From Tilletia caries (taxonomy: Eukaryota; Basidiomycota; Exobasidiomycetes; Tilletiales; Tilletiaceae): a stretch of 64,000 nt of DNA. Numbering within the stretch: position 1 is the stretch's first letter; each line of letters opens with the position of its first letter. Where the stretch lies: contig JALUTQ010000018.1 in the NCBI GenBank assembly GCA_032718865.1, forward strand, positions 558,001 through 622,000. Direction: 5' to 3'. The translations under genes and the position numbers were made by a program. Of the stretch, positions 6,394 to 57,554 are shown in pieces. The notes below the pieces were generated by a model. That model ran no database searches and was not told where the DNA came from. It saw nothing but the letters and a program-made list of their open reading frames with translations.

Positions 6394-6534
6394 CGACACG
6401 CACAGGCATTGAAAGTATACAGGTATGATGTCGTCCACTTTGCCCCCAGCCCCGCCCCCTCCCTTTTTAGGAGACGACTCCTTCTCCAGCGAATTTACGG
6501 CTGCTTCGTCTGCGGACAGCGCGCCGCCAACTGC
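6007..6534. other. non-coding leader with (CT)n tract; target site of the LTR element
   Basis: Contains a (CT)n run at 6366-6393 and, from an ATG at 6427, an open frame (MSSTLPPAPPPPFLGDD..) that reads up to the ACTGC at 6530-6534. Joined across the LTR element to the sequence after 21132 this frame stays open for a further 20 codons or so. The target was therefore probably an exon or the start of another element's gag. No identity can be given. Confidence 0.4.
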
Positions 6535-6656
6535 TGTGCTGGTGTACCACGTGGCTGGACCACGTGCTCCCCTCTAATATCTTATCTCTTATCTTCTTTT
6601 CTCTCTTTTCTCATCACTTCTCCTTCTCTCGGCCGAGAGACTTCCCTTTCTTCCTC
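6535..6656 (+). repeat. 5' LTR, first 122 bp
   Basis: Matches 20868-20989 with five substitutions. Contains the two CACGTG boxes and the palindrome TCTCGGCCGAGA seen in the 3' LTR. It stops abruptly after TTCTTCCTC, where the 12.3-kb insert begins. Confidence 0.88.
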
Positions 6657-6657
6657 A

Positions 6658-6714
6658 TTCCCCAGACTCTTTAGAGTTATGGGGTTATTGGGGTGGTTTT
6701 CGTTACGGCCGTAA
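6658..6714 (+). repeat. terminal motif, copy A
   Basis: TTCCCCAGACTCTTTAGAG, then a GGGGTTA-rich stretch and the palindrome TTACGGCCGTAA. The same order of motifs occurs at 57499-57554 and, more diverged, at 9420-9472. Confidence 0.7.
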
Positions 6715-7564
6715 ATCTATTCGCTACATCGCTCGAACAAACTTTTTATTTTCGTCCTCAAACCGCCTGAAAGTTTCTCACGAGAGGGGTATCTGAATTC
6801 TCTGTTATGCTACCAAGGAATAGCCTTTATCCGATCATGGCGATGGGTACCTCGTTCGAGTCGAGGTTGGTGAGGATGCGGAGATTGTTGTGGTTGCGCC
6901 TGGAGATACCATGGTGCGCTGGTGCGCACCTCGGAGCATTTCCATGGAACATCATGGAGCGCATGGAACAAACTTTAGCTGCGCACTCTCGACGCGCTCG
7001 ACACCCGACATTCGACAAGGCTTCACGCTTCACGCCTTCACCGCTTCACCCACCACTTCGACATCCATGGATCACCAATTTCAATCCCTTGGGTTCTGAC
7101 TGCTCACTGCCCACTGCGTTGCTGATAGCTCACTGCTGTTCTGCTTTTCCTCAGCACCTTGATCACAGTCTCCGCTTTGTTTCCAGCTTCACTCTGTCTC
7201 AGGCCTCATTATCTCCTTTATCGTCACCCAAGGTGCTTCAACAAGGTGCGTTGGCGAGTCACTGCTTCTAACACGCTCGCAGTTTTGCTCACCTCACTTC
7301 TCTTTCTTTATCATCTCGACACGACAGGGTTAGCTGCTGGCCTTCGTGACGGTCCGGTGCTCTCCTCGCCAGCCTCGGCTCCAACATTATGGGTGAGAGG
7401 CGAGAGCAGTCTAGTCGTTGAGCTTCCAACGCATAAGTGTACGAGCCACGAGGCACAATTGACAGACCTCCTCCACTCTCGGGCCCTTCTGCGCGTTTCT
7501 GTTCCAGGTTATTTCCTCCAGGGCGGTCTCAAGCTCGGTGGCTTCTCAAATCGCGGCCTTCTGG

Positions 7565-8019
7565 ACGCGCGTTCTTCATCAATCATCGTATGGGCCCTGT
7601 TTGGTACGTTTGTCGAGGCTCTTGTGATGTATCACTAATCGTTGACATCTCATCCTGACTGACAGGCATCTCATCCTGATTGACCTCGCAGGTGTCGGCA
7701 TTCTTACGGTCATCTTCTCTGTGCTGGGGGTGAGTCCTACGATGCTGGCATTGTTGTGCTTCGACAGGTGCTGGCATGAGAGACTGAAGACAATTATTAT
7801 CAGGACGCATGGGGAACGATGTACAAGCATACGCTTGCGGACTCCAGGAGGAAGTACGGCTGGAAGGCACGCTGGCGACGCCGACGGGAGCTCAAGCAAA
7901 AGAAGGAGCAAGCCAAAGAGGGCAATCCGAACGAACCTGCCGAACCAGCCAATGAGGCAGATGAGGAAGGTGCCGATCCTGATCAGAGCCAAGCGCCGTA
8001 CGAAAAAGCTGATGGATGA
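7565..8019 (+). pseudogene. C-terminal fragment of an outward-rectifier (TOK-type) potassium channel
   Basis: Three exon-like pieces with proper GT..AG borders: up to 7603, 7692-7729 and 7804-8019. Together they read ..IIVWALFG / VGILTVIFSVLG / DAWGTMYKHTL.., followed by a Lys/Arg then Glu/Pro-rich tail ending at 8019. This resembles the last membrane helix after the second pore of fungal two-pore channels. A GRAFFI segment just before it is in another frame, so the piece has a frameshift. The pore itself is absent. The fragment cannot encode a channel. It is the first of three same-strand host-gene fragments in the 12.3-kb insert. Confidence 0.5.
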
Positions 8020-8207
8020 ACTGGCACGGGTTCCTTTGCACCATCGGACGCCGGCGATGACATGGACGAAGGCCAGACGGGGGACAACACGAGGCTATGC
8101 TCTCCCTCGACCTCCAGTCGCCTATCACTATACAGTGAGTGTTTCCTCTGACGCGTATGATCTTTCTCTGGCTGTTTGTTAACAATTATGTCCTTGGTCT
8201 CCAACAG

Positions 8208-9145
8208 CTGGATTGCCTTCGTCCCTGTCATCATGTCCCAGGGCACCCCAGACCAGATCGATCGTTGGGGCAGCCGCGCCATGCGCCACGAGATTATGGG
8301 AGGTACGCACTCTTCCCCCACCTTTCCGCTTGTATGATTAGTAAAGCAGCTCACAGATCTTCTCTGGCGTCTTCTCCCCTCCCTCGCCAATCAACAGCCT
8401 ACCTCCAGACCGAGCTCGGACACGGAAGCAACGTCGCCGGTCTTGAGACTACCGCCACCTTCGACAAGGCCTCGGCCATCATTCACTCGTCCACCTTGAC
8501 CTCCACCAAGTGGTGGGCAGGCGGTCTCGGCACCACCGCGACGTGAGTTCTCTCTCTTCCACAACGATACTCGAAGACCCCGCGTCTGGTTTCTCACCAC
8601 CGCCCACCTTTAACCCGTTTCTTTTCCCACCAGGCACGCCGTCGTCCAAGCACAGCTCATCCTTGACGGCAAAGGCATTGGCCCGCACCTCTTCTTCGTC
8701 CCCCTCCGCTCCGTCGAGACCGGCCAGCTCTTCGAGGGCGTCCACGCCGGTGACATCGGTCCCAAAGCCTACGGCGCCTTTGGCGGGCTGGACAACGGAT
8801 GGGCGCGTTCCGACCACTACCGGATCCCGCGCGAGAATATGTTCATGAAGCACTCGCAGGTTACGAAAGAGGGGCAGTATGTGAAGCCGCCGTCGTCGAA
8901 GATGTCGTACTTGGGCATGACGTTCATCCGCTCGCAGATGATCGACCGTTGCGGGTATGTTGTCATATGGGCATCACTTGGTTCTCTCTCTCTATGATGT
9001 ACTCACGCGTATCTCTCTCTCTCCTTGTAGATGGATGCTTTCTCGTGGCATCACCATCGCCATCCGGTACTCCTCTGTCCGTCGTCAATTCCGCGGCCCC
9101 GACTCAACGACCAAGTCCGACGAAGAACGGGCGGTGATCTCGTAA
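8208..9145 (+). pseudogene. internal fragment of a peroxisomal acyl-CoA oxidase gene
   Basis: Four exon pieces with intact splice borders: 8208-8302, 8398-8542, 8634-8954, 9031-9145. They read through typical acyl-CoA oxidase motifs in order: [39 protein letters not shown], then [20 protein letters not shown], then DHYRIPRENMFMKHSQVT, and finally RYSSVRRQFRGP. This corresponds to the middle of the enzyme (FAD and acyl-CoA binding). The first third and the entire C-terminal half, including the catalytic Glu region, are missing. The frame stops at 9145 where the next exon should follow. Acyl-CoA oxidases start peroxisomal beta-oxidation. Preserved introns argue for a genomic, not cDNA, origin of the fragment. 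Confidence 0.85.
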
Positions 9146-9419
9146 TTATCACTTCACTCACAGCTCAACCACACCATCATGCACCATGCATCTTTCTGTA
9201 ATAGTAATCATGTCTTAGAAATGCAATCTTCCTTACTTAGTAGCCTCGGACAGCTCCGATCACTTCCTGCGCCCGACCACGACCATGTTGTCCGGTACAG
9301 GGGGAGACTATGTCATTCATTTTTCTTTTTGATTTATTTCAATACTGTAAATGGTAGCTACAGTCTTGCTGAACATGTATGGGAAGGGTTTAGAAAGAAC
9401 GAGCAGGAATTGAGCGAGA

Positions 9420-9472
9420 TTCCCCAGACTCTAGTTCTGGGGTTCCTTGAGCCTGGTTAGAATTTCGGCCGA
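9420..9472 (+). repeat. terminal motif, copy C (diverged)
   Basis: TTCCCCAGACTCTAGTTCTG, a GGGGTT segment and TTTCGGCCGAA occur in the same order as in copies A (6658) and B (57499). It precedes the malate dehydrogenase fragment, so the 12.3-kb block may be a composite of two elements. Confidence 0.5.
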
Positions 9473-9525
9473 ACTTTTACTCTCGACATCGATTGAAACT
9501 TTTTTTTTTCGCACCAAGCAAACAC

Positions 9526-9605
9526 TGTTGTGAACATTCTACCACTATACTAAAAGGTGAGACCAGTCTCGACCCAAGTGTCATGGATGATGCACATATC
9601 CAACA
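9526..9605 (-). repeat. solo LTR of a miniature LTR (TRIM-type) element
   Basis: An 80-bp sequence starting TGTTGTGAACATTC and ending ATATCCAACA, nearly identical to the two LTRs at 21896-21975 and 22172-22251. It is flanked by AACAC on both sides (9521-9525, 9606-9610). It is therefore a true integration that later lost its interior by LTR recombination. Strand given as for the full element. Confidence 0.93.
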
Positions 9606-10084
9606 AACACACCTTTCAGTTCTAATATATCTTGATCTTATGGCTATCCTCTGCTACCGCCCCAAGTTTGAGAGCAGCTGAAAGAGAATTCGTGCACTGG
9701 GGACGCTCTGAAGTGTCACTTTTGATTAATTCCGTCGGCCGATCACGCTGTTGCTAGGCGGATGTACGCTTGGCCGCCCATCTGGCACTCACTGACTTAT
9801 CCAAGGCATCAACACCACAGCTCAAAGCTGATACTTATCTACCTTGGTCACGTCCATGAGGCTCGCTGTCAATTCCGTCCCGCTTCTCCTCCGCATAGCT
9901 CTGTGGCTCTCGACCTGCGCCGTTTCTCCAGTGCAGCCGCAAACCGATAGGTCGCTATCCCCCGACCTCCGTGCTACCGTTGGCACTGGTCAGCCTGTGA
10001 CTCTGTGAGCACACGGGCACACCCTCAAGTCACAACAACACACGCTCGTTACGCGATTTCTGGACTGACGCCTCCCCTTTACGT

Positions 10085-10595
10085 TACACAGATCGCTCTT
10101 CTCCTCAAGCAGGAAACCCAGGTCACTGACCTCCGGCTGGCGGCTGTACGACATCCGTCTCGCCCCCGATGTCGCTTCCGATGTTGTCTACAACCCCAAG
10201 CGGTGAGTTCTTCCTCTTCCCTTATTTGGGCGGCTCTGACGCGTCATGAGCTACAATGATGCTCACAGCTCATCACTTCGTAACCTCGTACAGTCTGTTC
10301 GGTGTGATCACGCTCGACGTCAACCGCGCCTCCACCTTCCTCTCCGGCATTGCCAACTTCAAGCCCGCTAAGGTCAACGTGCCCATCGTCAGTGGCCACT
10401 CTGGCGTGACCATTGTGCCCCTCTTCTACCAGGTCGCCCATGGCTTCTTCGTCTCGGCCGGCGAGCTGCGAGCAATGCGAGAAGTGCAAACACTGCATCC
10501 AGTTTGGTGGTGATGAGCTCGTCAAGGTTAAGGATGGCGCAGGGAAGGCTACGCTCTCCATGGCGTACGCTGCCGCTGTCTTCAGCGGAGAGTGA
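10085..10595 (+). pseudogene. malate dehydrogenase gene fragment, internally deleted
   Basis: Reads IALLLKQETQVTDLRL, then YDIRLAPDVASDV, then jumps to VVYNPKR. The middle of the enzyme, about 100 residues with the NAD-binding and first active-site segments, is missing. After an intron-like gap the frame resumes as SLFGVITLDVNRASTFLSG and [19 protein letters not shown] frameshift follows and the last part ([19 protein letters not shown]..) is in another frame, ending near 10592. The order of motifs is that of NAD malate dehydrogenase of the mitochondrial/peroxisomal type. Deletion and frameshift make it non-functional. Same strand as the two fragments before it. Confidence 0.82.
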
Positions 10596-12525
10596 GTCTT
10601 ACTTTTCCTCCCCCACGCGGAACACGCGTCTCTCATCTGCAAAAGGTTGACACTCTCCTTTCGTTCCTTGCTCAGCCTAATCCGCGCCCTGAGGCCTAAA
10701 CGGCGAGAACGGACGGTGTCGTCAAGTGCACATATACACGTCCAACAGTCCGACTCGGACCTTCCCGAGGCAGCCCCAAGGCCCAGAAGTGTCGCTGCTC
10801 CTAGTTCTTACACCGGAATTGATGCTCGAAGTTGATGCGGCTGACAGCGATCTTCTTCACCCAAACGCAACGACGACGGCCTTCGAAAGGGTTCGTTCCT
10901 TATCCCCCGCTCCCTCCTCACGCGACCGGATCGTCGAAACTCAGCCCTCGGATGCTCCGTCTCCTCATCAGTTATCCGCCACATCCCACAACTCAGCACC
11001 AGCAGCACCATTCTCGCTTATCGGCACTGCCCCGGCCATGCTGTCCTCCACATCAGCTATGTCATCTTTCTCCGCTCACCAACACACCGGCGAAATTATC
11101 TCGGTCCTTGCACCCGTTCCGCCGCGCGTGCAGGGCGAGCGACGGTTGGATAGGTACAGCTGGAACGTACGGCGTAAGCAAGAGAGCTGCGGCTGCGGCT
11201 GTACCGCTGTCACCATCGATGAGCTCTTCCGCTGGTGGTGGGATCGGATCCAAGTTCTCCCTACGTCGACGGGTGAGCGAGGAAGGTCTCGGTCTCGTTG
11301 GCCGAGCAGGTCATCCGCCATGACCACCTCCCCGCTCGACAGCGCTCGGCGCAGTATGAGTCTAGTCAGCCACTCGCTTCCAATCTCACTGACCGAAGCC
11401 ATCGCCTCATCTTCCATCTATTCTACCACCACTCGCCCTCACGCTCACTCTCACTTCCACCATCGCGCTAGCTAACCCTTCCCTCCTTACTCTCACAGCA
11501 ACCCTCCTCCACGATGTCTGACCGCTGACCGCGCCGTACGCTCTCTGCCGTGATCTGGTCACTGACTCTCCTTATCTCCTCGTTCGCCTCGCGTCTTTGT
11601 TTTATACGGGATTTCTCTACTCCCGCTCCTACTCTTCCAATTCTTTCCAGCTCCCTCCCTTTCTTTCCCCCTCTCCCTCTCCCCGGCTGCTTCTTTATTT
11701 TCTCCGGTCCGATTCCCCGTCTGCTCCCCTATTTTCTCCTTCACTCCTTCTGTCTCAGCTTCGCGGCTTTTTTGCCCCTGTCTTCTCTTTCATTGCATTC
11801 ACAGCTGTTCTCTGTCATCGTCTCCTCTCTGCACAATCAGTAACATCATTGGGCGTTGCTTTCTGCTTCTTTGGTACATACGGCCGTGCGGGATAATTCA
11901 CTACGTGTGTTAAGTACCTTGATCAACATTCAACATGTGACATGAACAATGATAATGATAGCTACGGTCACAACGGCGTGGCGAAGCAGACGAAGGGTAG
12001 CGAAGCTACCCTGAGCTTCTGCGTAGCCATGCCAAGCTGGCTTTCATCCATAATCCATATGTCATCTCATGACATGCTTTTTGTGTTCCGGTGGCGCGGG
12101 GCGCCTCCCAGTCAGTTTCGGAGGAAATCTACCAAGACTTCTGCCAGGCCATAAGGATCAGAGGTCTACACCGAGTCTGGGGGATCCTCTGGCCTTCAGC
12201 CAGGTCACTATCCATTGGGGCAAACTTGGCGGGGAAGAAGTATGTACCCCTGCGCGCGACGCATATAATCAGGCAGAACTCGAAAATGGCGTTGTTCCCG
12301 CGCTTCAAATTTCACACACTAGTCCATCACACCCTTACACATCTTTCTGACATGACTGGAGAGAAATTGAGTCAGAGTTTAGCGAGATCCGACTGTTTGA
12401 AGTATGTTGTGTAGGAATACGTGAGGTTTGGATTCGGAAACCTTTTCTCGGCCGAAAGAAATTGCTCAAGCTTTGTTCCAATTTCTAACAACATAAATGG
12501 ATTTGGGAGATGGCCACAACCTTGA
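10596..12525. other. low-complexity and unassigned sequence of the 12.3-kb insert
   Basis: Contains a Ser/Pro/His-rich open frame (10726-11475) without recognisable homology, a pyrimidine-rich stretch (11620-11800), a long hairpin repeat (11962-12030) and AT-rich spacer. No gene can be supported. Confidence 0.4.
11962..12030. repeat. palindromic hairpin repeat, copy 1
   Basis: Core GAAGGGTAGCGAAGCTACCC with flanking arms (..GGCGTGGCGAAGC / GCTTCTGCGTAGCC..) gives a near 60-bp palindrome. Related copies lie at 57848-57905 and 58015-58075. Confidence 0.7.
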
Positions 12526-13525
12526 GGGCCTGTTCAGTAGCAAGCCAGGGCCCTTTTCGCAGGCTTGAAATTCCAGAGAATTTTGGCACTCTGATCAGAC
12601 TTGCTTTTAAGCCTGAGCCAACATCTGCGAGCTGATCACCGGCTTGGAAAAACGCGTGTTCGAGGCACGTCTAGAAAATTAGCAGACGCGACGCGTCTTC
12701 TTTGCGCACCTCTGCTGCCATCAACAAGCCGCATTCATAGTCTCAACTCTCACAAGTCACACACATCCTCGCTCGTGAGTCTCTGAGCGTCGTGGACTTG
12801 ATACCCATCGCGCTTCTTACTCCCAAATCCCAATCTCTCCACCGCTTTCCAGGTTACGGCAGCCGGGCAGCTCACGTCATCAGCTCCCCAACGACGCGCT
12901 CGGACGCGCCGACGGCTCTTGTTCTCTCCGCCTACGCCCTTACTCGTCGACCTCGGACCTCGGCCTCCCTCACGGGCTTATCACACCACACCGTGAGCCT
13001 CGTTCGCGCTACACAATGACAGCACGCTCTAATGTTCACTGACACAACTCTCTCTTCTTTCAGTGCACTATCTCGAGCAACACTTCGCTCGGTCTCCTTC
13101 CGGTCCGTCTTCTTCTTTTTGACGCTGTCTGTGAGTCCTGTGCTCTCTGTCTGCTTTCTCTCGCTGCGCGTCTCAATGCAACAGAGGACTGAAAGTGTTC
13201 TTGTTCCTTCTCTTTGATTTCATTACAGGACAGATACGCTTGTTGCACGCGTCTTTGGCTCTCTCCCGCGCGCCCTCATCTACTGCTGGCCGCCTGGATC
13301 CATACGCTGTCAAGGTCAGTGTCTCCCGTCGTCTTCGCGTTGCTGCCTGCCTCGTTGCTGATATAGATCAATGCAATCTTACTTTTTCTATCGTCAGCCG
13401 CACGAATCATCGTATCTTTTCTGGTTTCGTCTCCCGTGAGTGCATCAGACCCGGATGCTAGACTTTTTGCCTATGTTTTACATATACTGACATGTATTCC
13501 CTCTATGATTGCACGATGATGCAGA

Positions 13526-14921
13526 ATGATACATCAACGTCTACGTCCCGTGCGTCCGCTTGCCTCGTTCTCTGCTCGTCGTCGGGATCAGCGGCGAAGA
13601 TCTGTGCTCGCCGCTGTTTCGATTGCAGCAGCGATGTATGCGCGCCGCTACTTCGTCAAGGAGGAGAAATACACGGGTAACGGTCAGCGTTTCGTGGAGA
13701 GTCTTTTCGATGGAAGCAGTGTAGTGTTTCGAGAGGCACTAGGCGTCCGCCCTGCCGTCTTTTCTGCCCTACTCGTACAGCTCGAGACAGAGACAGCCTT
13801 CGGCGGCACTCGCTGCATCTGCGCCCGCGAACACTTGGCCATATTTCTTTGGACAGCACGCTGGGCGGCTACCTGCCGTCTCGTGGCCATCACATTTGGC
13901 CACTCTACCGCTACAATCTCGAGGTGAGTATACCTCCAACCAGCGATCCCAAGCTTCCAAGCTTACACCTTATTGACTACATAATACATCTTCACTTCAG
14001 TTCTTTTCGGCGCACTATCGCGGCCCTGTTGACGCCTTCAGTCTACCAGAAATACATCAGAATGCCAACAAACTCAACCCCGGTCCCTGAGCGCATTCAG
14101 CGCGACCCATCGGTGCGCGCGTTCTCAGCAGTGGTTGGAGCCGTCGATGGCACTCATTATCCCGCACGCCCTCCAGCGAACGTTCGTCAGCGCTTTCGCA
14201 ACCGCAAAGGTACCTTGTCATTCAACGTACTTGCCGCGTGTTCGTTGGACATGATGTTCCAGTACGTCTACACTGGATGGGAGGGAAGTGCTGCAGACTC
14301 GATGATATTTCACAGAGCTCGGCAACTCAGCTGGCGAGTCTCAAAGGGAAAGGTCTGGCTGGGAGATGCCGGATTCCCGTCATGTGATTCCCTGTTGGTT
14401 CCCTTCCGCGGCACGCGTTATCACCTGAAGGAATGGGGACCAACTGCAGACCAGTGAGTATCACCGTTGCCTGCACCAGGGCGCATGATCCACATGCCAC
14501 TATGCCTATCAATCTCATGGTTCTTTTTATTCCTTCTTGTAGACCGCGGAATGCTCACGAGCTCTACAACAAGAAGCACGCGTCCCTTCGCAGCGTGGTA
14601 GAGCGCATCTTCGGCGTGATTCAAGAGCGATTCAAGATCCTCGTAGCCGGGTGCGATTACGACCTCAAGACCCAGGCCAACGTGTTTCCCGCCCTCGCTG
14701 TAGTCCACAACTTCATTCGACTGCACGACCCGGACGACACGACTCCTCATCCGGACGACGACAATCGCGGAGGCGACATCGATGTCGCGGACGAGGGAGA
14801 CCTCAGTCGCACCTCATGCACCACCTCGGCGGAGAAGAAGAGGGGCGAGAAGGAGCGAGAGAAGGTAGCTCAGAGCTTGTGGATGTCCTACCGAGTCAAG
14901 AAGAGTGCGCTTGGTGTCTAA
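13526..14921 (+). CDS. PIF/Harbinger DDE transposase, intact
   Basis: Exons 13526-13923, 14001-14453 and 14543-14921 sum to 1230 nt (409 residues) with GT..AG junctions and no stop. The catalytic Asp residues are in VVGAVDGTHYPARPP and WLGDAGFPS, the Glu in VVERIFGVIQERF. The C-terminus is acidic then basic. A 5' exon or a start in the leader 12600-13500 is possible because that stretch is also intron-like. The enzyme is expected to cut at the GGGCCTG ends of this element. With the Myb gene at 15130-16527 intact too, this copy could be active or recently active. Confidence 0.88.
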
Positions 14922-15129
14922 TGTGCTGCCTACAACTAGTATTACCTATTTCTATGCTTTCCTTCACCGTCCCCACAATACATGTTCCTCTTTCTGTTAC
15001 GGCCTAGAGACCAGTGCGAGGAGGGAGAACAAGAAGGAAAGGAGAATAACCGCGCATGGGCATGTCACATGTGAATTGAGAAGTTGAGAAAGACAACGCG
15101 AATGATGAGGCATAATGCAGAGACAGCCA

Positions 15130-16527
15130 TCAGGGCTCTGTGTTGGACAAAACACGACGGAGGTAGGCCTCGCGGATCTGTTCCGTGCCGGTGCGCTTGG
15201 AGGCAGCCAGGGTCACATAGGCGCGGGCGGCTCCGCAGTTCTCAGCAAAGTGAGAGACAAGGACGGCCACCTCATCGACGTCGAAGCTGTCGGCGTCGAG
15301 CTCGAGGAGAAGGCGAGTGGCCGCGTCGATTGGGTCCTCATCCCGGTTGGAGGAAGGTCCGGCCTCGGGCTGTGCCATGACGGACAAAATGTCAATCATG
15401 CGGTCAAACTGATCGCTGCCTCCACCACGACGCTTGGTGGCACTTTGAGGGGCGGTGGAGGGAGCGGCGCGCTTCTTTCCTTTGACGTCCTTTATTTGAG
15501 AAGATGAATGTCAATATGCGGAGGAAAAGGGAGGAGATACGAGAGAAATGCTGAGATACTTACCTCGTCCGCTTCATCCTCTTCGATGTCGTCTGGTGCT
15601 TCGCCCGTCGAGCCCAAGGCAGGGTCGAGAGCGAATTCGCCGGTGGCCACGGCCTCGGAGCAGAGTTCATCCACACGGACGTAATACCAAAGGCCCTTCT
15701 TGCGCCATTTCCGGGCCTTGGGGTTCTTCTAAATGGGAGTCAAGACAGTAAAAGGGTTCAGAAACCAGGAACATTGCATACAGCACAGCTGCAAAACAGA
15801 AAGATCATGAAATTTACCTCCACGTAGGCCTCCCAAACGGCAGTCTCCGCTTCGATGCAGTTCTCTTCGGCATTCCATCCGAAACCAGACTGAGCAACAA
15901 TGCCGCGGACCTCACGCCAAGCCGCCTTCATCTGTCAGAGTAGAAGGAAACATGAGTCAATCATCTGAGACCTGTTGGTCGCTGGGAGTGGGAGTGGGAG
16001 TGTGGGACAGAGGTCGAGGACGAATGAGTGATGACTTACAATCTTCCAGTGGTTTTCGACCGCCTTATTGTCCTTCGCCTTGGCCTTGCCGCTCTTCTTG
16101 CTGCCGGGGGCCGCTGCTTTGGCAAGAGCAACCTCAATGTCGTGATACGTGGATGCCTAACAGTCAACAGTAGTCAACAACAGGAAATATCAAAAGAATG
16201 AGGCATCAATGAAAAGCTTTGATAGTTCAGCCACGCAGTTGGGACTCTTACCTTGAACCCGTTGTCGGAGGCTGCACCACTGGCCTTGACTTCCTCGAGG
16301 ATATCCAACAAAATTTCCTCCTCTTCCTTGACCCACATGACCTTTTCCTTTGCCGTGTCTTCAGCTTCCTGCGGGGTGATCTGCGCATCACCCGCGGGAG
16401 GAACAGGAGCACCACCAGGCTGACCTGGAGCGGGAGGAGGGGAAGGGGGAGACGAAGAGGCAGGAGCTGCACCGGAGGCAGGAGCTGCACCGGAGGCAGG
16501 AGCTGTGTTCCTTGTACGACTCGCCAT
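15130..16527 (-). CDS. Myb/SANT-like protein of Harbinger-2, copy 1 (intact)
   Basis: Five exons on the minus strand: 16527-16252, 16156-16040, 15931-15818, 15728-15564, 15489-15130. They sum to 1032 nt (343 residues). An Ala/Pro/Ser-rich N-terminus with a repeated ASGAAP unit precedes the Myb/SANT-like region (VMWVKEEEEILLDILEEVK, ..VENHWKIMKAAWREVR, ..SGFGWNAEE). An acidic linker, a basic segment KGKKRAAP and a helical C-terminus follow. Exon number and phase match the Harbinger-1 gene, confirming the model. The start is the ATG at 16527, preceded by an in-frame GTG. Role: end-binding and nuclear import partner of the transposase. Confidence 0.87.
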
Positions 16528-17109
16528 GTTCACTCACTTTGAACTGTTGAGTGTCTTGTTGGTACGGAGAGAAAAAGAATGTCCAGAGATGATGGTGGGC
16601 ACGACTCAGGATGAACTCAGATGAAAAGACCGGAATCTTCCTGTTTCAACGCGTCCTCACGGTGGTATACGCGACGCGTAAAATGGCAAATGAGATGAGA
16701 AAAAATGAAAATGAGGTGAGGATGCGCAGGCTTGGTTCAACCCGCAAAAATTTGCAGGCTTGCGGTCTGTATGGGCGGGCTTGAAAAATTTCAAGCCTGC
16801 GCTTCGACCGTCAAAGCCCGCGCTCGCTGCTGATCGCAGACTCACTACAGCGCGTGTTTAACTGAGCCCGGGCTCACTTTCAAGTAAGGCCGGTCTGCTA
16901 CTGAACAGGCCCTGAGTCTGGGGAATACCTCTGGACTCTAAAATCACCGTCCCCACAATACATGTTCCTCTTTCTGTTACGGCCTAGAGACCAGTGCGAG
17001 GAGGGAGAACAAGAAGGAAAGGAGAATAACCGCGCATGGGCATGTCACATGTGAATTGAGAAGTTGAGAAAGACAACGCGAATGATGAGGCATAATGCAG
17101 AGACAGCCA

Positions 17110-18514
17110 TCAGGGCTCTGTGTTGGACAAAACACGACGGAGGTAGGCCTCGCGGATCTGTTCCGTGCCGGTGCGCTTGGAGGCAGCCAGGGTCACATAG
17201 GCGCGGGCGGCTCCGCAGTTCTCAGCAAAGTGAGAGACAAGGACGGCCACCTCATCGACGTCGAAGCTGTCGGCGTCGAGCTCGAGGAGAAGGCGAGTGG
17301 CCGCGTCGATTGGGTCCTCATCCCGGTTGGAGGAAGGTCCGGCCTCGGGCTGTGCCATGACGGACAAAATGTCAATCATGCGGTCAAACTGATCGCTGCC
17401 TCCACCACGACGCTTGGTGGCACTTTGAGGGGCGGTGGAGGGAGCGGCGCGCTTCTTTCCTTTGACGTCCTTTATTTGAGAAGATGAATGTCAATATGCG
17501 GAGGAAAAAGGGAGGAGATACGAGAGAAATGCTGAGATACTTACCTCGTCCGCTTCATCCTCTTCGATGTCGTCTGGTGCTTCGCCCGTCGAGCCCAAGG
17601 CAGGGTCGAGAGCGAATTCGCCGGTGGCCACGGCCTCGGAGCAGAGTTCATCCACACGGACGTAATACCAAAGGCCCTTCTTGCGCCATTTCCGGGCCTT
17701 GGGGTTCTTCTAAATGGGAGTCAAGACAGTAAAAGGGTTCAGAAACCAGGAACATTGCATACAGCACAGCTGCAAAACAGAAAGATCATGAAATTTACCT
17801 CCACGTAGGCCTCCCAAACGGCAGTCTCCGCTTCGATGCAGTTCTCTTCGGCATTCCATCCGAAACCAGACTGAGCAACAATGCCGCGGACCTCACGCCA
17901 AGCCGCCTTCATCTGTCAGAGTAGAAGGAAACATGAGTCAATCATCTGAGACCTGTTGGTCGCTGGGAGTGGGAGTGGGAGTGTGGGACAGAGGTCGAGG
18001 ACGAATGAGTGATGACTTACAATCTTCCAGTGGTTTTCGACCGCCTTATTGTCCTTCGCCTTGGCCTTGCCGCTCTTCTTGCTGCCGGGGGGGGGCCGCT
18101 GCTTTGGCAAGAGCAACCTCAATGTCGTGATACGTGGATGCCTAACAGTCAACAGTAGTCAACAACAGGAAATATCAAAAGAATGAGGCATCAATGAAAA
18201 GCTTTGATAGTTCAGCCACGCAGTTGGGACTCTTACCTTGAACCCGTTGTCGGAGGCTGCACCACTGGCCTTGACTTCCTCGAGGATATCCAACAAAATT
18301 TCCTCCTCTTCCTTGACCCACATGACCTTTTCCTTTGCCGTGTCTTCAGCTTCCTGCGGGGTGATCTGCGCATCACCCGCGGGAGGAACAGGAGCACCAC
18401 CAGGCTGACCTGGAGCGGGAGGAGGGGAAGGGGGGGAGACGAAGAGGCAGGAGCTGCACCGGAGGCAGGAGCTGCACCGGAGGCAGGAGCTGTGTTCCTT
18501 GTACGACTCGCCAT
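17110..18514 (-). pseudogene. Myb/SANT-like protein of Harbinger-2, copy 2 (frame-broken duplicate)
   Basis: Same gene in the second tandem unit. Exon 1 has a G7 run at 18430-18436 where copy 1 has G5, and exon 2 has a G9 run at 18087-18095 where copy 1 has G5. The first change ruins the Myb region. The second brings the frame back by net six bases, so exons 3 to 5 would be in register. Introns and all other bases match copy 1. Either a very recent duplicate damaged only by slippage, or a sequencing artefact. Confidence 0.88.
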
Positions 18515-18946
18515 GTTCACTCACTTTGAACTGTTGAGTGTCTTGTTGGTACGGAGAGAAAAAGAATGTCCAGAGATGATGGTGGGCACGACTCAGGATG
18601 AACTCAGATGAAAAAGACCGGAATCTTCCTGTTTCAACGCGTCCTCACGGTGGTATACGCGACGCGTAAAATGGCAAATGAGATGAGAAAAAATGAAAAT
18701 GAGGTGAGGATGCGCAGGCTTGGTTCAACCCGCAAAAATTTGCAGGCTTGCGGTCTGTATGGGCGGGCTTGAAAATTTCAAGCCTGCGCTTCGACCGTCA
18801 AAGCCCGCGCTCGCTGCTGATCGCAGACTCACTACAGCGCGTGTTTAACTGAGCCCGGGCTCACTTTCAAGTAAGGCCGGTCTGCTACTGAACAGGCCCT
18901 GAGTCTGGGGAATACCTCTGGACTCTAAAAGGCCAGGCCGGTCCCG

Positions 18947-19084
18947 ATCACCTTCTCCGCTCTCGCTGCTCTCCCTTGTACTTAGTTACTCTGAGCAATT
19001 ATTCACCCTTCTCTCCTATCTCAGAGGCGTTGCCTACTACAGAGGACGCAGTCCTACTTACTCTACTAGCTGCTAGCTAGGATA
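18947..19084 (+). repeat. 5' LTR, last 138 bp, followed by a primer-binding site
   Basis: Identical to 20990-21127. The next bases, TGGTGATGAGAGTGC from 19085, begin with TGG directly at the LTR edge and are the likely tRNA primer-binding site. Confidence 0.9.
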
Positions 19085-19683
19085 TGGTGATGAGAGTGCT
19101 TCTCTCAGCTGTCCGGACGACGGAGGCTGAGCACCCGCCGCCGCCCGACTACGATCTCGCCGAGATCTCACCTTCTAGACCATCTCGCTGAGATGCGTCC
19201 TGCTGCGCTGCAGCCTACCAAACGACGGACACTGGAGACTCGTCGCCCTTGACAGTTGCGCTGCGACGTCAATATCAAGTTTTCCTCCTCGAGCGATTGG
19301 CACGTCACCATCGCAGTCGGTTCCTCCTCTTCAACTTTCTTTGCAGTTGCACATCTTTTCAACCAACTCCTTCCGCCCGCCATCCTTCCACAGACCACAC
19401 GTCATCTGCTTTCGACTTAGCATCGATACAGCACGCTTTTCCTCCCGGTCTCCGCCCTCAAACCGGTCCACCTGTCCAGATGCGCGCCGGCGCCGGTAAG
19501 CACCAGCTTCTTTGCTCGGCGCGACTCTTCTCTCTATCAGCGCGGGAGTGTCGAGGTCGAGCAATCCCTCCGCCCCCGACAGCTGTTTCTTTTCGCGAGA
19601 CCTCTCCAGAACACATCACGGAGTCGGCGTCGCCAAGAACACACCCCGCCACCCGCACACCAACACCCGCATACACACACACG

Positions 19684-20867
19684 ATGAGCTCAACAACACA
19701 GCGCCTCATCGCACCGGACGAGGTCGCAAAGAACAGCACCGCAGACTCATGCTGGATCTCCTACAAGGGAAAAGTCTTCGATGTCTCCTCCTTCCTCGAG
19801 AACCACCCGGGCGGGGACGACTACATCCTCAAGTATGCAGGCAAGGACATCAGACTCGCCATGGACGGCCCTGACGAACACTCCCACTCCGACTCCGCAT
19901 ACGAGCTCCTCGACGAGTTCCTCATCGGCCGTCTCGCACGCACAGATAGCCCAGAGGAGTCCTCCGCCGTCGCACCCGCCTCCGAAGGTGGCGCAGGCTT
20001 CTCAGGCAAGGACGACGCCATCGTCATCACCGAGGACTTCCACCCCGAAGAGACCGACCACGCCCAGGACCGCAAGAAGCACGCGTTCCTCGACCTGACT
20101 GAACCGCTCATCCCGCAGATGCTCTTCGCCACCTTCAGCAAGGACTTCTACCTCGCGCAGGTACACTCGCCCCGCCACCTCAAGGACCCCGCGCGTCTGT
20201 TCGGACAGTGGTACCTGGAGATGTTCACTCGGACGCCCGGGTACGTCGTCCCTGCCTTCTGGGGACCTATCACTGCCGCCCTCTTCTACCGCTCCATCGT
20301 CCAGTTCGTCGACCCCAAGGGCGCCGGTGCACAGCCGATGTTCAGCCTCGACCTCTCATCGCACCACATCGTCTCCAGCCCGTTCACCTTCGCCACTCCG
20401 CTCTCGCCCGCTTTGGAGCCGGGAGCATTCCAGATGGCAGCGTGTACCAAGACGCTGCCGTGCTTTGCCATCGGGTTCGTCATCTGGACCATCTTGGAAT
20501 ACGTCCTGCATCGGTTCCTGTTCCATGTCGATGACATGCTGCCCGACAAGCCATCTTCCTCCTCCTCCACTTCATCCTCCACGGTATTCACCACTACCTC
20601 CCCATGGACAGACTGCGACTGGTCATGCCACCGCTCCTGTTCACCCTCCTGCAGGCACCCTTCACCTCGCTCGGCTACGCCCTCTTCTCACCAGCAGTCG
20701 CCAACGGCATAATCTCAGGTGCCTTCACAATGTACATTAGCTACAACTGCATGCACTACGCCCTTCCTTGTTCCCCTGCGCTCTCTCCACGCTACCTCTC
20801 CTGGCTCACACCCGTTGCAGTTATCCTTTCATGCCGACTCGGGACAGTCGTCTTCTAAGGGTGGGCA
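19684..20867 (+). pseudogene. sphingolipid fatty-acid 2-hydroxylase (SCS7/FA2H-like), retro-captured and truncated
   Basis: From the ATG at 19684 the frame encodes a cytochrome b5 domain (residues ~1-80, KGKVFDVSSFLENHPGGDD with the haem-binding HPGG). The hydroxylase domain follows, with WTILEYVLHRFLFHVDDMLP and its first His box. At about 20550 the frame shifts, and IFLLLHFILHGIHHYLPMDR with the second His cluster continues in another frame through VMPPLLFTLL to YISYNCMHYAL. The last His boxes (HHY..) are absent because the 3' LTR begins at 20868. Family role: alpha-hydroxylation of ceramide fatty acids in the ER. No intron interrupts 19684-20750, consistent with a cDNA origin. The GC-rich leader 19249-19683 resembles a fungal 5' UTR. 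Start chosen because the b5 domain begins at once after it. Confidence 0.85.
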
Positions 20868-21127
20868 TGTGCTGGTGTACCACGTGGCTGGACCACGTGC
20901 TCCCCTCTTATATCTTATCTCTTATATTCCTTTCTCTCTTTTCTAATCACTTCTCCTTCTCTCGGCCGAGAGCCTTCCCTTTCTTCCTCATCACCTTCTC
21001 CGCTCTCGCTGCTCTCCCTTGTACTTAGTTACTCTGAGCAATTATTCACCCTTCTCTCCTATCTCAGAGGCGTTGCCTACTACAGAGGACGCAGTCCTAC
21101 TTACTCTACTAGCTGCTAGCTAGGATA
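20868..21127 (+). repeat. 3' LTR of the SCS7-carrying element
   Basis: Intact 260-bp LTR, TGTGCTGG...CTAGGATA, preceded by a purine tract and followed by ACTGC. A TTATAT stretch near 20910 could serve as TATA box. Confidence 0.88.
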
Positions 21128-21153
21128 ACTGCTCAGCTAAGGATGGGTGCGGA

Positions 21154-21604: not shown

Positions 21605-22735
21605 TAAGGAAGAGCACGGAGTGCCCCGGAATTTCCGCACTCCGGGGAGGACCTCCGCAGCAATTCCGGGGCCTCTCAGGGCATTCCGCATTCCGGTTAA
21701 ATTACTCTTCTTTCGGGCGCAGAGCTCCGTATTCCGGGGAAAGATTCAAATTCGTACATCTGGAATTCCGGCTTCCGTCAAAATTTAGGCTTCGATCAAT
21801 TTTCGATTCCGCATTCCGCAGCTCCCGGAATGCGGAATTTCGCCGGATTCCGGGACTCTCCTCCGCAATCGCAAGATCATATGAAAACGAGTCGATGTTG
21901 TGAACATTCTACCACTATACTAAAAGGTGAGACCAGTCTCGACCCAAGTGTCATGGATGATGCATATATCCAACACTCCCTCTCATCATCATGACCCTTT
22001 TGGTCTGAGACGCGAGACCCCATAGGACTAGGGGTGAGACTCTTTCGGCCCGGAGTACCCGGAGCACGTGCTGTGGAAAACCCGACAAGCACCCGACAAG
22101 AAAATGGTCGGAAAAGAAATCTCGAGATACCGGGAATCGAACTCACGACAGAGTCGATCAGACTCTTAATCTGTTGTGAACATTCTACCACTATACTAAA
22201 AGGTGAGACCAGTCTCGACCCAAGTGTCATGGATGATGCATATATCCAACAGTCGACCCCTTTCTAAATCGGCTTTGTACTCGTCCACAGTCTACATTGA
22301 AGCTCTGCATTGGCCATTTGATGCCTCACTCGCGTCCATTTGCTCCTCTTCAAGCCTCATGTGTCCTGTTGAGACCACAAGACTGGGTCTCCTCATATGT
22401 GAAACTCGCCGGAGAGTCTCATTGATAAATGAAACCCCGAATGAGACCCCACATCACGTGAACCCCGGAATCTCCCGGAATCCGGCGGAATTTCGGGAGA
22501 ATGAGCTTGTCTAGCCACAGATTCCGCATTCCGCAAGAAAAGTCACGGCCAAAGCAAAATCCATTCCGCATTCCGGCTGAGCGGTATCAGGAAATTCCGG
22601 CTTCCTGCTTAAAAGGACTGAATTGACAAAAATTGAAAATTAGCATTCCGGGTTCCGGGTACCGCCGGAACTCTGCCCGGAGTGCCCCGGAATTCCTGCA
22701 AACCCATTCCGGGGTCTACTCCGTGCTCTTCCTTA
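21605..22735. mobile_element. hAT-like non-autonomous element inserted in Gypsy pol
   Basis: Perfect 18-bp inverted ends TAAGGAAGAGCACGGAGT with the 8-bp target duplication GATGACGA (21597-21604, 22736-22743). No transposase. Both sides are full of ATTCCGCATTCCG/GGAATNCGG words, a dense set of subterminal repeats as used by hAT transposases. Contains the miniature LTR element at 21896-22251, so the order of insertion is Gypsy, then hAT-like, then LTR. Confidence 0.9.
21896..22251 (-). mobile_element. miniature LTR retrotransposon (TRIM-type), 356 bp
   Basis: Two identical 80-bp LTRs (21896-21975, 22172-22251; TG..CA) flank a 196-bp interior, and GTCGA is duplicated at 21891-21895 and 22252-22256. 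On the minus strand a purine tract GATGATGAGAGGGAG precedes the 3' LTR. The interior starts right after the 5' LTR with GATTAAGAGTCTGATCGACT. Its complement reads like the anticodon arm of tRNA-Lys(CUU), i.e. a primer-binding site for a half-tRNA as in Copia-type elements. A B-box-like GAGTTCGATTCC follows. It encodes nothing and needs proteins from another element. A solo LTR of the family lies at 9526-9605. Confidence 0.92.
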
Positions 22736-27316: not shown

Positions 27317-27742
27317 ACCACATCGGGCTCGTCTATTGGCCGACCCGTCGGCCCGGTACCCGAGAGGGCCCTTATCGCCCTCGCCCCCAATGCCACGTTT
27401 CATCGGTGATTAGGCGATCAGGACGCGCGTTAGCGCGATTTGACTACTACCTAGTGTATATAATAAAATCTGGCAAAAGGTGGTGACGAGGGCGGGACGC
27501 CGAGATGATCCGAGCGGGACTTCACGGAAGGTCCCGTTTCCACTGTCCACCAGCAGTGGTCCCGTGCATGCGTCGCACCGGGCAAGCTGGCCATTACAGT
27601 GGAGCGTAATGCATACAAACTGATTACAAAGTGTCGCACAACGCGTCGCGTGAAGAGAGTCGCGCTTACAGCTTCCATCCACCATCCTTCTCTCTTTCAA
27701 GCCCGCGATGTCCATTCTCCACAGGGCCACAGGGCTGTCAGC

Positions 27743-30700
27743 ATGACCGTCTTGCCTTTGCCTGCAGAGTTGGAGGTCGAGCGCTCCATGGATGGCGCTG
27801 CAAGCGTTGCCTTGGCAGCGCTGACGAGCGCTGAGGTGCTGGAAGAAGCAGCAGCACTTCGAAAACGGCTATGCGCGACCCATCTGGACAAAACACAAAG
27901 CGACTACGACAGCTACCTGGCGGAGTACGAGAAGTACTGCAACGACCGACAGCCGCCCATAGAGCCCTACCCCATCACCGCGTCCAAAGCTGCGCTCTTC
28001 ATCGATATGACAATGAAGCGCGAGCATGTGAGTAGCCCTTGACTTTGTTTCTCCCAGTGCCCACCACTCCACCAGAGTCCTAGAAGATGTGGACAACGAG
28101 CAGCAGTTCATTCATCATTGGATCATACTTTCGTCCGTCATGGTCAAGGCTGGATGCGAAGGGAAGGGGCAAGGGCGGTGGTAATGTGGTACCACGAGGT
28201 TGTCGAGCGTGAATGGTCTTCGAGCGTGATGGTCTCAATGCGTTCGGCTCTACAATCCCTGTGGCCTGTGGTTTCGGAGTTTTGGACACGCTCACACGCT
28301 GACAGCCTCTTTTCATTTGTCTGCAATCCATCTTTCTAGTATGTCAGCGGTCGAGGAGCTGGATCGAGCTCTGAGGCAAAGAAGACGATTGCAGGAACTC
28401 AGTTGGGGTACTCGGCCATCAAGCAGCGTATCAACGCGTTGGAATGGTTTCGAAAGGTCAATGAGGACGATTGGCGAGAGCATCCCGACTTTACTGCTAC
28501 ACGGACAAAGCTCCGTGACAATGCGACCATCAACTCGCTGGAGACTACCTCCAAGAACGACAAACACAACAGAGCGGGCGCAGGGCAAGAGCAAAAAGGC
28601 CCTCGGGTCTTCCTCTGGTGAGTACCAAGTCAACCTACTCTCTCCTGTGGCCTATTCCCTTGTCAGAAGACCGCAGAACAGCTAACCTCACCGTTGATAC
28701 TTGATGTGCAGCTACGCTTAGAAAAGAAGAGGTCTTGAAGTTGAGTGAGTGGGCGCTGGGACAAGGTCGTACACCAGCCAAGTTAGGCACCGCGGTACGA
28801 GATCGGTCTATGCTTTCGCTATCCTTGGCAACTGCGTTTCGAGGAAACTCTCTTCGCCAACTGGAGTGGTCCGATTTGTTCGTCCATCATGCAACTGTTC
28901 CTTCCCGTGGCGATGCGAATCCAATAAAGGCAAGCGCATCCTGGTGTGGTGTGGTGTGTTCTGCCTCTACTTGTACTGATCTAACACTCTTCCACACTCT
29001 CTCATCACTAATGGACTAATTCAGCTTCTAGCACTTCGCGCCGACAACAGCAAGACGAATCAACAGGGTCGCTTGGACGAGTTTGCCGCGGCGCGGCACA
29101 AAGACCCTCTTCGCTGTCCTGTCGGCGCGCTGGCGATGCAGGCGCTGTGGTCGATGCAACTTGGAAGCCGAGGGCGACCTACCTTTGCGCCCGACTTCAA
29201 GAGAAAGACCCACGGCAAGTACGGTTACAGGGAATGGTGGGGTTGGGTTGTCTTCCGTGGACGACATTCTGCATCAAGCAAAGAGATGAGCTACAAGAGT
29301 GAGTAGTTCTGCTGGAGCCGGGAGAATAGAGATTGTTGTGGATTGCCGATTGGGGTTGAGGTTTGGTTGGTAGGAGCTCCATGGTTGATGGTTGGAATAC
29401 TGTTTGGGATGAGGGTTGGGAGGGCGACACGCACGCACACATGCTGCTGTTATGGTGTTTCTCAATTTGACGAACGTTTCCTTCTCCCCAATTCATCAGC
29501 TCATGACGGCGCGGTGCGAACGATGTTTCGCCTCAACAATGTTGATGTGGGCAAGACCACACACGCAGGGCGTACCGCGGGAGCCATGCACGCTCGCTAG
29601 AACGGGGCCAGTGTTTCTGGAACGAAGGCGCTCGGAGGGTGGTCCAACGGTGGAGCGTTCCGGTCCTGCTACGATCGTTCGTTCCCCCTTGATGCGATTT
29701 GGGCGGTCGCTGGATTCAATGGACAGGACCTGGACTCGTACTATGTTGCCAGGGCCCACACAAGTAAGATCCCGCTCTCCATTCCTTCACGCTCGTCAAC
29801 TGCACAGTTCTAGGTTGCTGATCGTTGCTCTTCTCCTCTCCATCTCTCCACTTTAGAGCCTCCCGACGTCCTCCTTTCCCAGCTCTTTCCGTGGATCGAA
29901 GACGAGCGAGAGAAGCTCAAGGAGCGACGGACGGCCAACGAAAATGCGTCCGACTTTGCTCTCTCTGCCTTCTTGGATTGTTTCGAATGGTTCCGAGAGG
30001 TGCTGCTTCAGGATGCGGCGATTCTCAGCCAGCATCCTGCTTGGTCGACCTTCAAGCCCTTCGCAGCGTGTCCGACCTTCTCCAGTCCGCAGTTTCACGC
30101 GTTTGCAGCAGCTCTCAACACAGCAGTCAAGGCGGAGGACTCAGAGGCAGAGAGGCAGTTCTCGCAACTTCCACAGCAGCTCGGAGCCGGGGTCAAGCTG
30201 GCGCTCGCTGATATCAAGACCGGTTTTGAGCGCAGGGACATGGCGTTGAATCAAAAGCTCGACCTTTGTCTGCAGCTTCTTGTCTTTCAAAACCTCCCGA
30301 GTGATGCACGATATCATCAGCAGCCTGCCCCCCCTCTCTCCACCATCACCGCTTCTGCTGCTCGTCCTCTACTTTCGGTTTCCAACCAGAGTCTTTCCCT
30401 TTCGGCCGGTGTCGGCACCTCCAACTCCAAGGATGTGAGCAGCGCGTCAGCTGCACGTGCGCCGTCTTCCTTCAGCAGCGGCACCCTCAGCAGCAGCGGT
30501 ACAGCAAGCAGCTCCCGCGCCTCGGCATTGTGTTCCTCGATCTCAACCACCACCAGCAGCAGCAACTCTTCGCACCTTTCCTCTCGGCACCCGTCTGGGC
30601 ACGCAACAAACCTCAATGATGCTCCTCAGCAGCTCCTTTCTCCTTCTTCGGCTCCGCAGCTCTCTTCTCCTCCCTTGCCGTCTTCGATTTCGGCTCCTTC

Positions 30701-57498: not shown

Positions 57499-57554
57499 TT
57501 CCCCAGTCTCTTTAGAGATTGGGGTTACTGGAACCAGTTTTCTTACGGCCGTAA
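57499..57554 (+). repeat. terminal motif, copy B
   Basis: TTCCCCAGTCTCTTTAGAG, a GGGGTTACTGG stretch and TTACGGCCGTAA, aligned with copy A at 6658-6714. Opens the second block of gene fragments. Confidence 0.7.

What the first reader, a model, noticed from the sequence alone, without database searches (positions are those of the whole stretch)
6657..18948. 12.3-kb insert in an LTR carrying three same-strand host-gene fragments
Both LTR halves abut the insert at the same AT. Inside are a potassium-channel end, an acyl-CoA oxidase middle and an internally deleted malate dehydrogenase, with introns kept and all on one strand. Ends show an asymmetric inverted repeat (ATTCCCCAGACTC at the left edge, its inverse 33 bp inside the right edge). 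This is the pattern of Helitron/Helentron gene capture, but no known terminus (CTRR) is present, so it may be a new family.
Basis: partly seen in the sequence, partly recalled or inferred. Interest (0 to 1): 0.87.

Follow-up and report, generated by a model that had tools for sequence, protein, structure and literature searches.

The report
Nested gene-capturing rolling-circle transposons (Helitron2-like)
In a wheat bunt fungus (Tilletia), a transposon of the rolling-circle kind that had picked up pieces of two host genes landed in an LTR and was later hit by a second such transposon carrying a third gene piece and by an unrelated one, so the "single insert" is really three nested mobile elements of which two belong to a multi-copy family whose likely driver gene was also found.

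Summary
The insert is real but is a nest. Element A (6658-18947) sits in an LTR and carries potassium-channel-like and acyl-CoA-oxidase pieces. Element B (9420-12209), with the same 5' motif, lies inside A and carries the malate-dehydrogenase piece. A PIF/Harbinger-type transposon (12526-18899) sits in A's 3' end; a tandem duplication of about 2 kb followed. A and B are multi-copy in a Tilletia genome. Seven empty sites show insertion exactly between a base (mostly A) and T, nothing duplicated or lost. The ends fit published Helitron2 ends (asymmetric inverted repeats, 5' and 3' hairpins), not canonical Helitron ends. B-type ends recur 23.6 kb apart around a RepHel gene (Rep plus PIF1 helicase, with introns): the likely autonomous partner. 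In subfamily A2 both inverted repeats carry matching changes. Unusual: an A/T-biased target, published as a canonical-Helitron trait, on Helitron2-type ends, and capture of intron-bearing host-gene pieces. Not settled: the RepHel's place in a Helitron1/Helitron2 tree (not tested) and A's own driver (no A-type element with a Rep gene found). Verdict: new family, variant of a known kind.

The parts
6529..6534 (.). target site duplication ACTGCT of the LTR element, left copy (right copy 21128-21133)
   Evidence: direct reading
6535..6657 (+). first 123 bp of the 5' LTR (260 bp in all)
   Evidence: matches 20868-20990
6658..18947 (+). element A with everything nested in it; A's own sequence is 6658-9419, 12210-12525 and 18903-18947 (about 3.1 kb)
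   Evidence: relatives join these pieces directly; empty site in LTR2
6658..6669 (+). A 5' inverted repeat TTCCCCAGACTC, 5' half of a terminal hairpin (6660-6684)
7557..8089 (+). captured potassium-channel-like piece with an intron; 86% to C10:270501-270999; 7557-7675 also in four relatives, 7676-8089 not in those four
   Evidence: weak domain support
8090..9144 (+). captured acyl-CoA oxidase middle piece with an intron; protein matches at about 8397-8543 and 8629-8952
9185..9419 (+). A subterminal repeat unit, present in several tandem copies in some relatives
9420..12209 (+). element B, nested in A between A and T; 5' TTCCCCAGACTCTAGTTCTGGGG
9526..9605 (+). about 80-bp repeat inserted in B, also at 21896, 22171 and in L073
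9885..10769 (+). captured malate dehydrogenase piece in B; likely donor C5:1536834-1538041 (73-79% DNA identity)
12173..12209 (+). B 3' end: inverted repeat GAGTCTGGGG, hairpin CTGGC...GCCAG, GTCACTA
12210..12525 (+). A subterminal region before its 3' end
12526..18899 (+). PIF/Harbinger-type transposon: ends GGGCCTGTTCAGTAGCA, 3-bp duplication TGA, DDE_Tnp_4 pieces at about 14143-14412 and 14547-14711
14964..18930 (+). tandem duplication, units 14964-16943 and 16944-18930, including about 30 bp of A's 3' end
18901..18912 (+). A 3' inverted repeat GAGTCTGGGGAA
18914..18947 (+). A 3' hairpin and terminus ...GGTCCCGA, followed by T
18948..19084 (+). rest of the 5' LTR
   Evidence: matches 20991-21127
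20868..21127 (+). intact 3' LTR, empty site for A at 20990/20991

Best explanation
A and B are non-autonomous rolling-circle transposons of a Helitron2-like family that capture host gene pieces at the DNA level. Shown: many copies share the ends at different sites; seven sites show entry between a base and T with no duplication or loss; captured pieces keep introns and recur in other copies (the oxidase piece in five other places, four of them between A-type ends); B-type ends also bound a locus with an apparently complete RepHel gene. Inferred: RepHel nicks at the 5' TT end, peels off and copies one strand, stops at the 3' inverted repeat plus hairpin, and joins a strand or circle into a new N/T site. 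Capture would follow when the 3' signal is bypassed, followed by internal deletion and exchange between copies. In the window, A entered an LTR; B and a PIF/Harbinger-type transposon entered A; a tandem duplication came after the Harbinger-type element.
For: Ends: 23 matches to the left 300 bp, 17 of which start at the terminus; 21 matches to the right 300 bp, 16 of which reach the last base; the window's own are included. I paired 11 complete elements besides the window copy. Empty sites: flanks of 11 of 11 pairs were joined and 5 gave a bridging match in the sequence held; with LTR2 and A's relatives this makes 7, all without gain or loss. Flank base before the 5' end: 15 A, 3 G, 1 T in 19 distinct sites, binomial P 1.3e-7 against the window's A content. 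Repeat matching: 5 of 5 TTACCC left ends go with GGGTAA right ends, 7 of 7 TTCCCC with GGGGAA, window included. Five of five left-end types folded form the 5' hairpin. Partner: C32:507830-531432; left end 99% to B over 105 bp; window B's right end differs from the partner's in 1 of 39 letters; PF14214 and PF05970; 100% over the 1,119 aa queried to a 1,925-aa T. caries protein, whose junction shows that the interruption between the two open pieces is an intron. Of 57 homologues, the second H is H in 55 of 55 with a letter there, the first H in 53 of 55, and the two tyrosines and lysine of YxxxYxxK in 49 of 49, 48 of 48 and 48 of 48.
Against: No A-type element encloses a Rep hit: 0 of 11 pairs against 60 listed PF14214 places, so A's driver is inferred from shared end motifs only. 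A predicted matching right end for the TTCCCTAGACTC variant was searched and not found (0 hits). Four of 19 flanks are not A. The T after the 3' end (12 of 12) is partly by selection, because pairs were built from right-end matches that include that T. B's two repeats match over 10 bp, then differ at one of the last two bases. The middle of the partner (C32:521001-531099) was not read, so its unity as one element is inferred from end positions, and its helicase end differs from the annotated T. caries C-terminus. For 6 of 11 pairs no empty site was found in what was held. The oxidase piece is only 36-48% identical in protein to host paralogues, so its donor is not identified.
Confidence: 0.9

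Rival explanations
1. Segmental translocation or non-homologous patchwork: the gene fragments were carried in with a chromosome piece, not by a transposon.
For: The oxidase, channel-like and dehydrogenase pieces lie on one strand with intron-like gaps between their coding stretches.
Against: The same ends with different flanks at many loci, exact empty sites, and the oxidase piece in five other places, four of them between A-type ends.
Confidence: 0.02
2. Canonical Helitron1: the A/T target is the canonical one and the family is a Helitron1 with drifted ends.
For: The base before the 5' end is A in 15 of 19 sites and T follows the 3' end in the copies read; a Helitron1-like group of Rep genes exists in the genome (L053 matches Helraiser at 3.2e-152).
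Against: No TC start and no CTRR end; a 5' hairpin and matched inverted repeats are present. The partner's Rep piece finds no solved structure at E up to 1; a 9-sequence RepHel profile matches Helraiser only in the helicase half (5.5e-16).
Confidence: 0.06
3. A cut-and-paste transposon (Pack-type element of a DDE superfamily) captured the genes.
For: Inverted repeats exist, and DDE_Tnp_4 pieces lie in the insert.
Against: The repeats are asymmetric, there is no target duplication at seven sites, and the DDE pieces belong to a separate nested element with its own ends and TGA duplication.
Confidence: 0.02

Closest known systems
Helitron2 (Bao and Jurka 2013, PMC3627910; passages read)
   Same: Inverted repeat at the very 5' end forming a 5' hairpin, its inverse near the 3' end (35 nt inside in A, 28 nt in B) and upstream of a 3' hairpin, 5' T, no target duplication at the seven sites tested, paired changes
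   Different: Published Chlamydomonas target is after TTTT; here it is N/T with a strong preference for A
FoHeli of Fusarium oxysporum (PMC5148889; passages read)
   Same: Fungal Helitron2-type ends, non-autonomous derivatives, no endonuclease domain
   Different: Other end motifs (TCAG...ATTTT or TGCCT...CTCCTGT), target TNAT/T for FoHeli1 and 2; that paper lists 27 putative capture events but finds no evidence that capture plays an important role
HELPO1/2 of Pleurotus ostreatus (PMC4289320; passages read)
   Same: Basidiomycete Helitrons inserting between A and T
   Different: T[C/G] and CTRR or CTTG ends; the authors state that no intact element showed evidence of carrying P. ostreatus gene fragments
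Helentrons / DINE-1 (PMC4067079; passages read)
   Same: Sub-terminal inverted repeats, 3' stem-loop, central repeats, non-autonomous derivatives
   Different: Endonuclease domain and TT target; no endonuclease domain is listed for the partner's protein and only one of 19 sites here is T/T

Membership tests
[quoted passage not shown]
   A: 12 bp, 3' copy 35 nt inside (slightly beyond the published range), 12 of 12 complete copies; B: 10 bp, 28 nt inside, 3 of 3 copies read at both ends
Helitron2 | 5' hairpin made with the 5' repeat | tested here: met
   Predicted for A0, A1, A2, A3 and B (5 of 5 types folded); D by reading only
Helitron2 | 3' hairpin downstream of the 3' repeat | tested here: met
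   Clear in B (CTGGC/GCCAG), interrupted stem in A
Helitron2 | no target site duplication | tested here: met
   7 empty sites; 6 of 11 pairs gave none
Helitron2 | T-rich target (TTTT / T or C; FoHeli TNAT/T) | tested here: not met
   N/T; A in 15 of 19, T in one
Helitron2 | RepHel protein in the Helitron2 clade | not tested
   No named Helitron2 reference protein was obtained; only indirect
Helitron superfamily | RepHel protein with HUH, two tyrosines and SF1 helicase in a partner with the same ends | tested here: met
   C32 partner for B, middle not read; for A inferred
Helitron1 | 5'-TC and CTRR-3' ends | tested here: not met
   TT start, CCCGA or CACTA end
Helentron | endonuclease domain fused to RepHel | tested here: not met
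   Precomputed Pfam domains of P0001 list none
Helentron | TT target | tested here: not met
   one of 19 sites
PIF/Harbinger (nested element) | DDE transposase, short inverted ends, 3-bp duplication | tested here: met
   PF13359, 17-bp ends, TGA duplication; that these mark the family is recalled

The most novel reading that the evidence does not exclude
A basidiomycete Helitron2 lineage has the A/T-biased target regarded as the mark of canonical Helitrons while keeping Helitron2 ends. Target choice and end recognition would then evolve separately. The lineage collects intron-bearing host gene pieces step by step, recombines them between copies (the window copy is a mosaic of two subfamilies), and keeps its two inverted repeats matched to each other, and its 5' hairpin foldable, as they evolve.
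Probability: 0.6. Interest if true: 0.62.

Novelty: new variant of a known kind. Interest (0 to 1): 0.55.

Why it matters
Host-gene capture by fungal Helitrons has been described as less likely than in plants and animals (PMC4289320) or as without evidence of an important role (PMC5148889; passages read of both). Here is a multi-copy fungal family with an ordered nest, exact empty sites, captured exons with intron-like gaps, and a likely RepHel partner in the same genome. The matching changes in both inverted repeats of one subfamily bear on Bao and Jurka's suggestion (PMC3627910, passages) that pairing of the two repeats ends replication, and make it testable by comparing copies.

Tried and rejected
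One 12.3-kb element: rejected, relatives lack 9420-12209 and 12526-18899. Two independent right ends: rejected, the one at 16914 is from a tandem duplication. C34:1311293 left end plus the Rep at C34:1317682 as autonomous partner: rejected, a near-identical segment (L030) lacks the 14 kb that holds the Rep gene, and no right end was found in the 17.8 kb read. Predicted right end GAGTCTAGGG for the CCCTA variant: searched, 0 found. Right end of the D copy at 57499: not found in the window. Potassium-channel identity by search of the reading frames as they stand: nothing relevant. Of the motif places read, L002 and L003 do not show a full left end. Literature on Tilletia and Helitron: two papers by listing, one of which (PMC9172201, passages) names 'helitronORF' among its transposon classes and no more; a search for smut fungi, Helitron and gene fragment gave two papers by listing on other fungi.
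Full report
WHAT IS THERE. The window lies in a 38.1-Mb, 40-contig genome. A RepHel protein piece from the same genome is 100% identical to a Tilletia caries protein and, over 59% of its length, 99% to a T. controversa one, so the host is a wheat bunt fungus of that group; the species was not settled.

IT IS A NEST. The left 300 bp have 23 matches in the genome, 17 of which start at the terminus; the right 300 bp have 21, 16 of which reach the last base (the window's own included). Aligning the window to these loci shows that relatives run straight from 9419 to 12210 and from 12525 to 18903. The stretch 9420-12209 is therefore a second element, B, with its own ends (TTCCCCAGACTCTAGTTCTGGGG ... 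GAGTCTGGGGGATCC-hairpin-GTCACTA), standing between A and T. The stretch 12526-18899 is a PIF/Harbinger-type transposon: 17-bp inverted ends GGGCCTGTTCAGTAGCA, a TGA duplication and DDE_Tnp_4 pieces. A tandem duplication (units of 1,980 and 1,987 bp, 99.5% identical) came after it, since both units contain part of A's 3' end. Order, inferred from nesting: LTR element, then A, then B and the Harbinger-type element in either order, with the duplication after the latter.

CAPTURED GENES. In A, 8090-9144 is an acyl-CoA oxidase piece: PDB matches 1.1e-26 and 1.7e-15 for two coding stretches. It recurs, mostly at 95-96% DNA identity, on C36, C17, C28, C34 and C21. Four of these five (C36, C17, C28, C34) lie between A-type end pairs by position; C21:244692 was not examined for ends. 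Host paralogues are only 36-48% identical in protein, so capture is old or the donor is elsewhere. Upstream, 7557-8089 matches C10:270501-270999 at 86%; the potassium-channel reading is supported only by a weak PF07885 match. In four relatives (L014, L015, L016, L026) the sequence between these two pieces is about 340 bp of a different stretch, which by my reading is the oxidase N-terminus, while the window copy has 414 bp of channel-like sequence. The two forms look like different internal deletions of a longer ancestor (inferred). The window copy is also a mosaic: its first 180 bp are 90-100% identical to L011 and only 73-80% to L014, in 60-bp steps, while from 7078 on it is 97-100% identical to L014 and 26-75% to L011. 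In B, 9885-10769 is a malate dehydrogenase piece (PF02866 5.2e-8; PDB 2e-12), with C5:1536834-1538041 as likely donor (73-79%). Copies on C30, C25, C39 and C3 carry it at 91-93%, and 15 more distant places carry part of it at 74%, 12 of them with a nearby match to B's 3' end region. B copies of 0.73-0.85 kb (C10, C35, two on C40) lack most of it.

ENDS AND TARGET. I paired left and right ends by strand and position: 11 complete A-type pairs besides the window copy, 2.1-21.9 kb long. Flanks of all 11 were joined; 5 gave a bridging match in the loci and window held: C34 in L071 (98.3% over 600 bp), C35 in window 27447-27923 (99%), C22 in L038 (93%), C25 in L028 (92%), C32 in L042 (99.4%); the other 6 gave none. 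With LTR2 and the A relatives for B this makes seven, all without gain or loss. The base before the 5' end is A in 15, G in 3 and T in 1 of 19 distinct sites (P 1.3e-7 for A). The base after the 3' end is T in 12 of 12 complete A-type copies, in part by selection, since they were found by a query that includes it. Duplicate loci (L030/L031, L010/L012) were counted once. Truncated left ends (L013, L023-L027), right ends without a partner, and the D copy were left out.

STRUCTURE OF THE ENDS. The 5' repeat can fold with the next bases into a hairpin in each of five types folded: CCCCA/TGGGG (A0), CCCA/TGGG with the outermost C unpaired (A1), ACCCA/TGGGT (A2), CCCTA/TAGGG (A3), CCCCAGA/TCTGGGG (B). 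A further family, D (TTCCCCAGTCTCTTTAGAGATTGGGG), has by reading a paired change in the inner stem; it has 23 genome copies, 21 exact, one at window 57499. In A2 the 3' repeat matches its own 5' repeat (TTACCC with GGGTAA, 5 of 5), in the others TTCCCC goes with GGGGAA (7 of 7); the A2 change also restores the outermost hairpin pair that is open in A1. These are few evolutionary events: one for A2. The same rule predicted GAGTCTAGGG for A3; a search found none, so either those two copies, with the same flank and thus duplicates of one locus, lack a right end or the rule fails there. B's repeats match over 10 bp and then differ at one base.

PARTNER. B-type left and right ends lie on C32 at 507830 and 531432, same strand, 23.6 kb apart. 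Between them is a RepHel gene: Rep with PF14214 and DUF6570, and PIF1 helicase. The interruption between its open pieces is an intron, as the 1,925-aa T. caries protein shows; that protein's annotated C-terminus differs from the reading frame here. In an alignment of 57 homologues the second H is H in 55 of 55 with a letter there and the first H in 53 of 55; the two tyrosines and the lysine are invariant where aligned (48-49 of 57); Walker A is present in P0001. Three of the 23 D left ends have a Rep hit downstream on the same strand (two on C39, 9.6 and 11.8 kb before one hit; one on C23, 20 kb), a lead not followed. None of the 11 A pairs encloses any of the 60 listed PF14214 places.

MECHANISM. 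Shown: copy number, exact N/T insertion at seven sites, matched ends, recurrence of captured pieces, partner gene between B-type ends. Inferred from the published work on Helraiser (PMC4778049, passages): rolling-circle transposition by RepHel, with the 3' hairpin as terminator and capture by bypass of it. The captured pieces now lie inside the elements, so bypass must have been followed by regaining a 3' end or by internal rearrangement; a filler-DNA route is not excluded.

COMPARISON. Bao and Jurka's Helitron2 description (PMC3627910, passages) fits the ends feature by feature, apart from a slightly longer 3' distance in A; the target does not fit. By the ends A and B are not Helitron1, and there is no endonuclease domain listed as in Helentrons. 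Of the Tilletia Rep genes, L053 is close to Helraiser (3.2e-152); the partner's Rep piece is not. A RepHel tree was not made for want of named references. That A/T is the canonical-Helitron target is as stated in PMC5148889 and PMC4067079 (passages).

NOT IN PRINT, AS FAR AS SEARCHED. Searches for Tilletia with Helitron, smut fungi with Helitron and gene fragment, Helitron with basidiomycete or captured gene fragments (20 of 89 listed), Helitron with gene capture and fungi and Helentron, Helitron2 or asymmetric terminal inverted repeats showed no description of this family in the listings; most subscription papers are not in that library and Repbase was not searched.

Noticed in passing
window 6535-21127: The LTR element that A entered has 260-bp LTRs, an ACTGCT duplication and, inside, a cytochrome-b5/fatty-acid-hydroxylase-like gene without two stretches (about 70 and 97 bp, presumably introns) present in the locus C15:717174-718466 (94-99% identical pieces): it looks like a spliced host mRNA captured by a non-autonomous LTR retroelement. 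The gene name beyond Cyt-b5 is my reading.
   Followed up: partly
window 57499-57524: Left end of a further family (D), 23 copies in the genome, 21 of them identical over 26 bp; the downstream sequence in the window (about 58.5-59.3 kb) reads to me like a sulphate-transporter gene piece.
   Followed up: partly
window 27447-27923: Intact empty site of the A-type element on C35 (99% identical flanks), so this stretch occurs at least twice in the genome.
   Followed up: no
C40:278555, C36:176640, C1:947806-953411 and others: 15 B-like places with a malate dehydrogenase part, all 74% to the window copy, three of them within 6 kb on C1.
   Followed up: no
L030 and L031 (C34:1366361, C34:1311293): A 1.5-kb segment with an A0-type left end is duplicated; one copy holds a 14-kb insertion with a Helitron RepHel gene that has five other copies 99% identical over the fetched parts.
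   Followed up: partly
C32:510413-512289: Between the partner's left end and its RepHel gene lie long reading frames that read to me like an F-box/leucine-rich-repeat protein, possible cargo.
   Followed up: no
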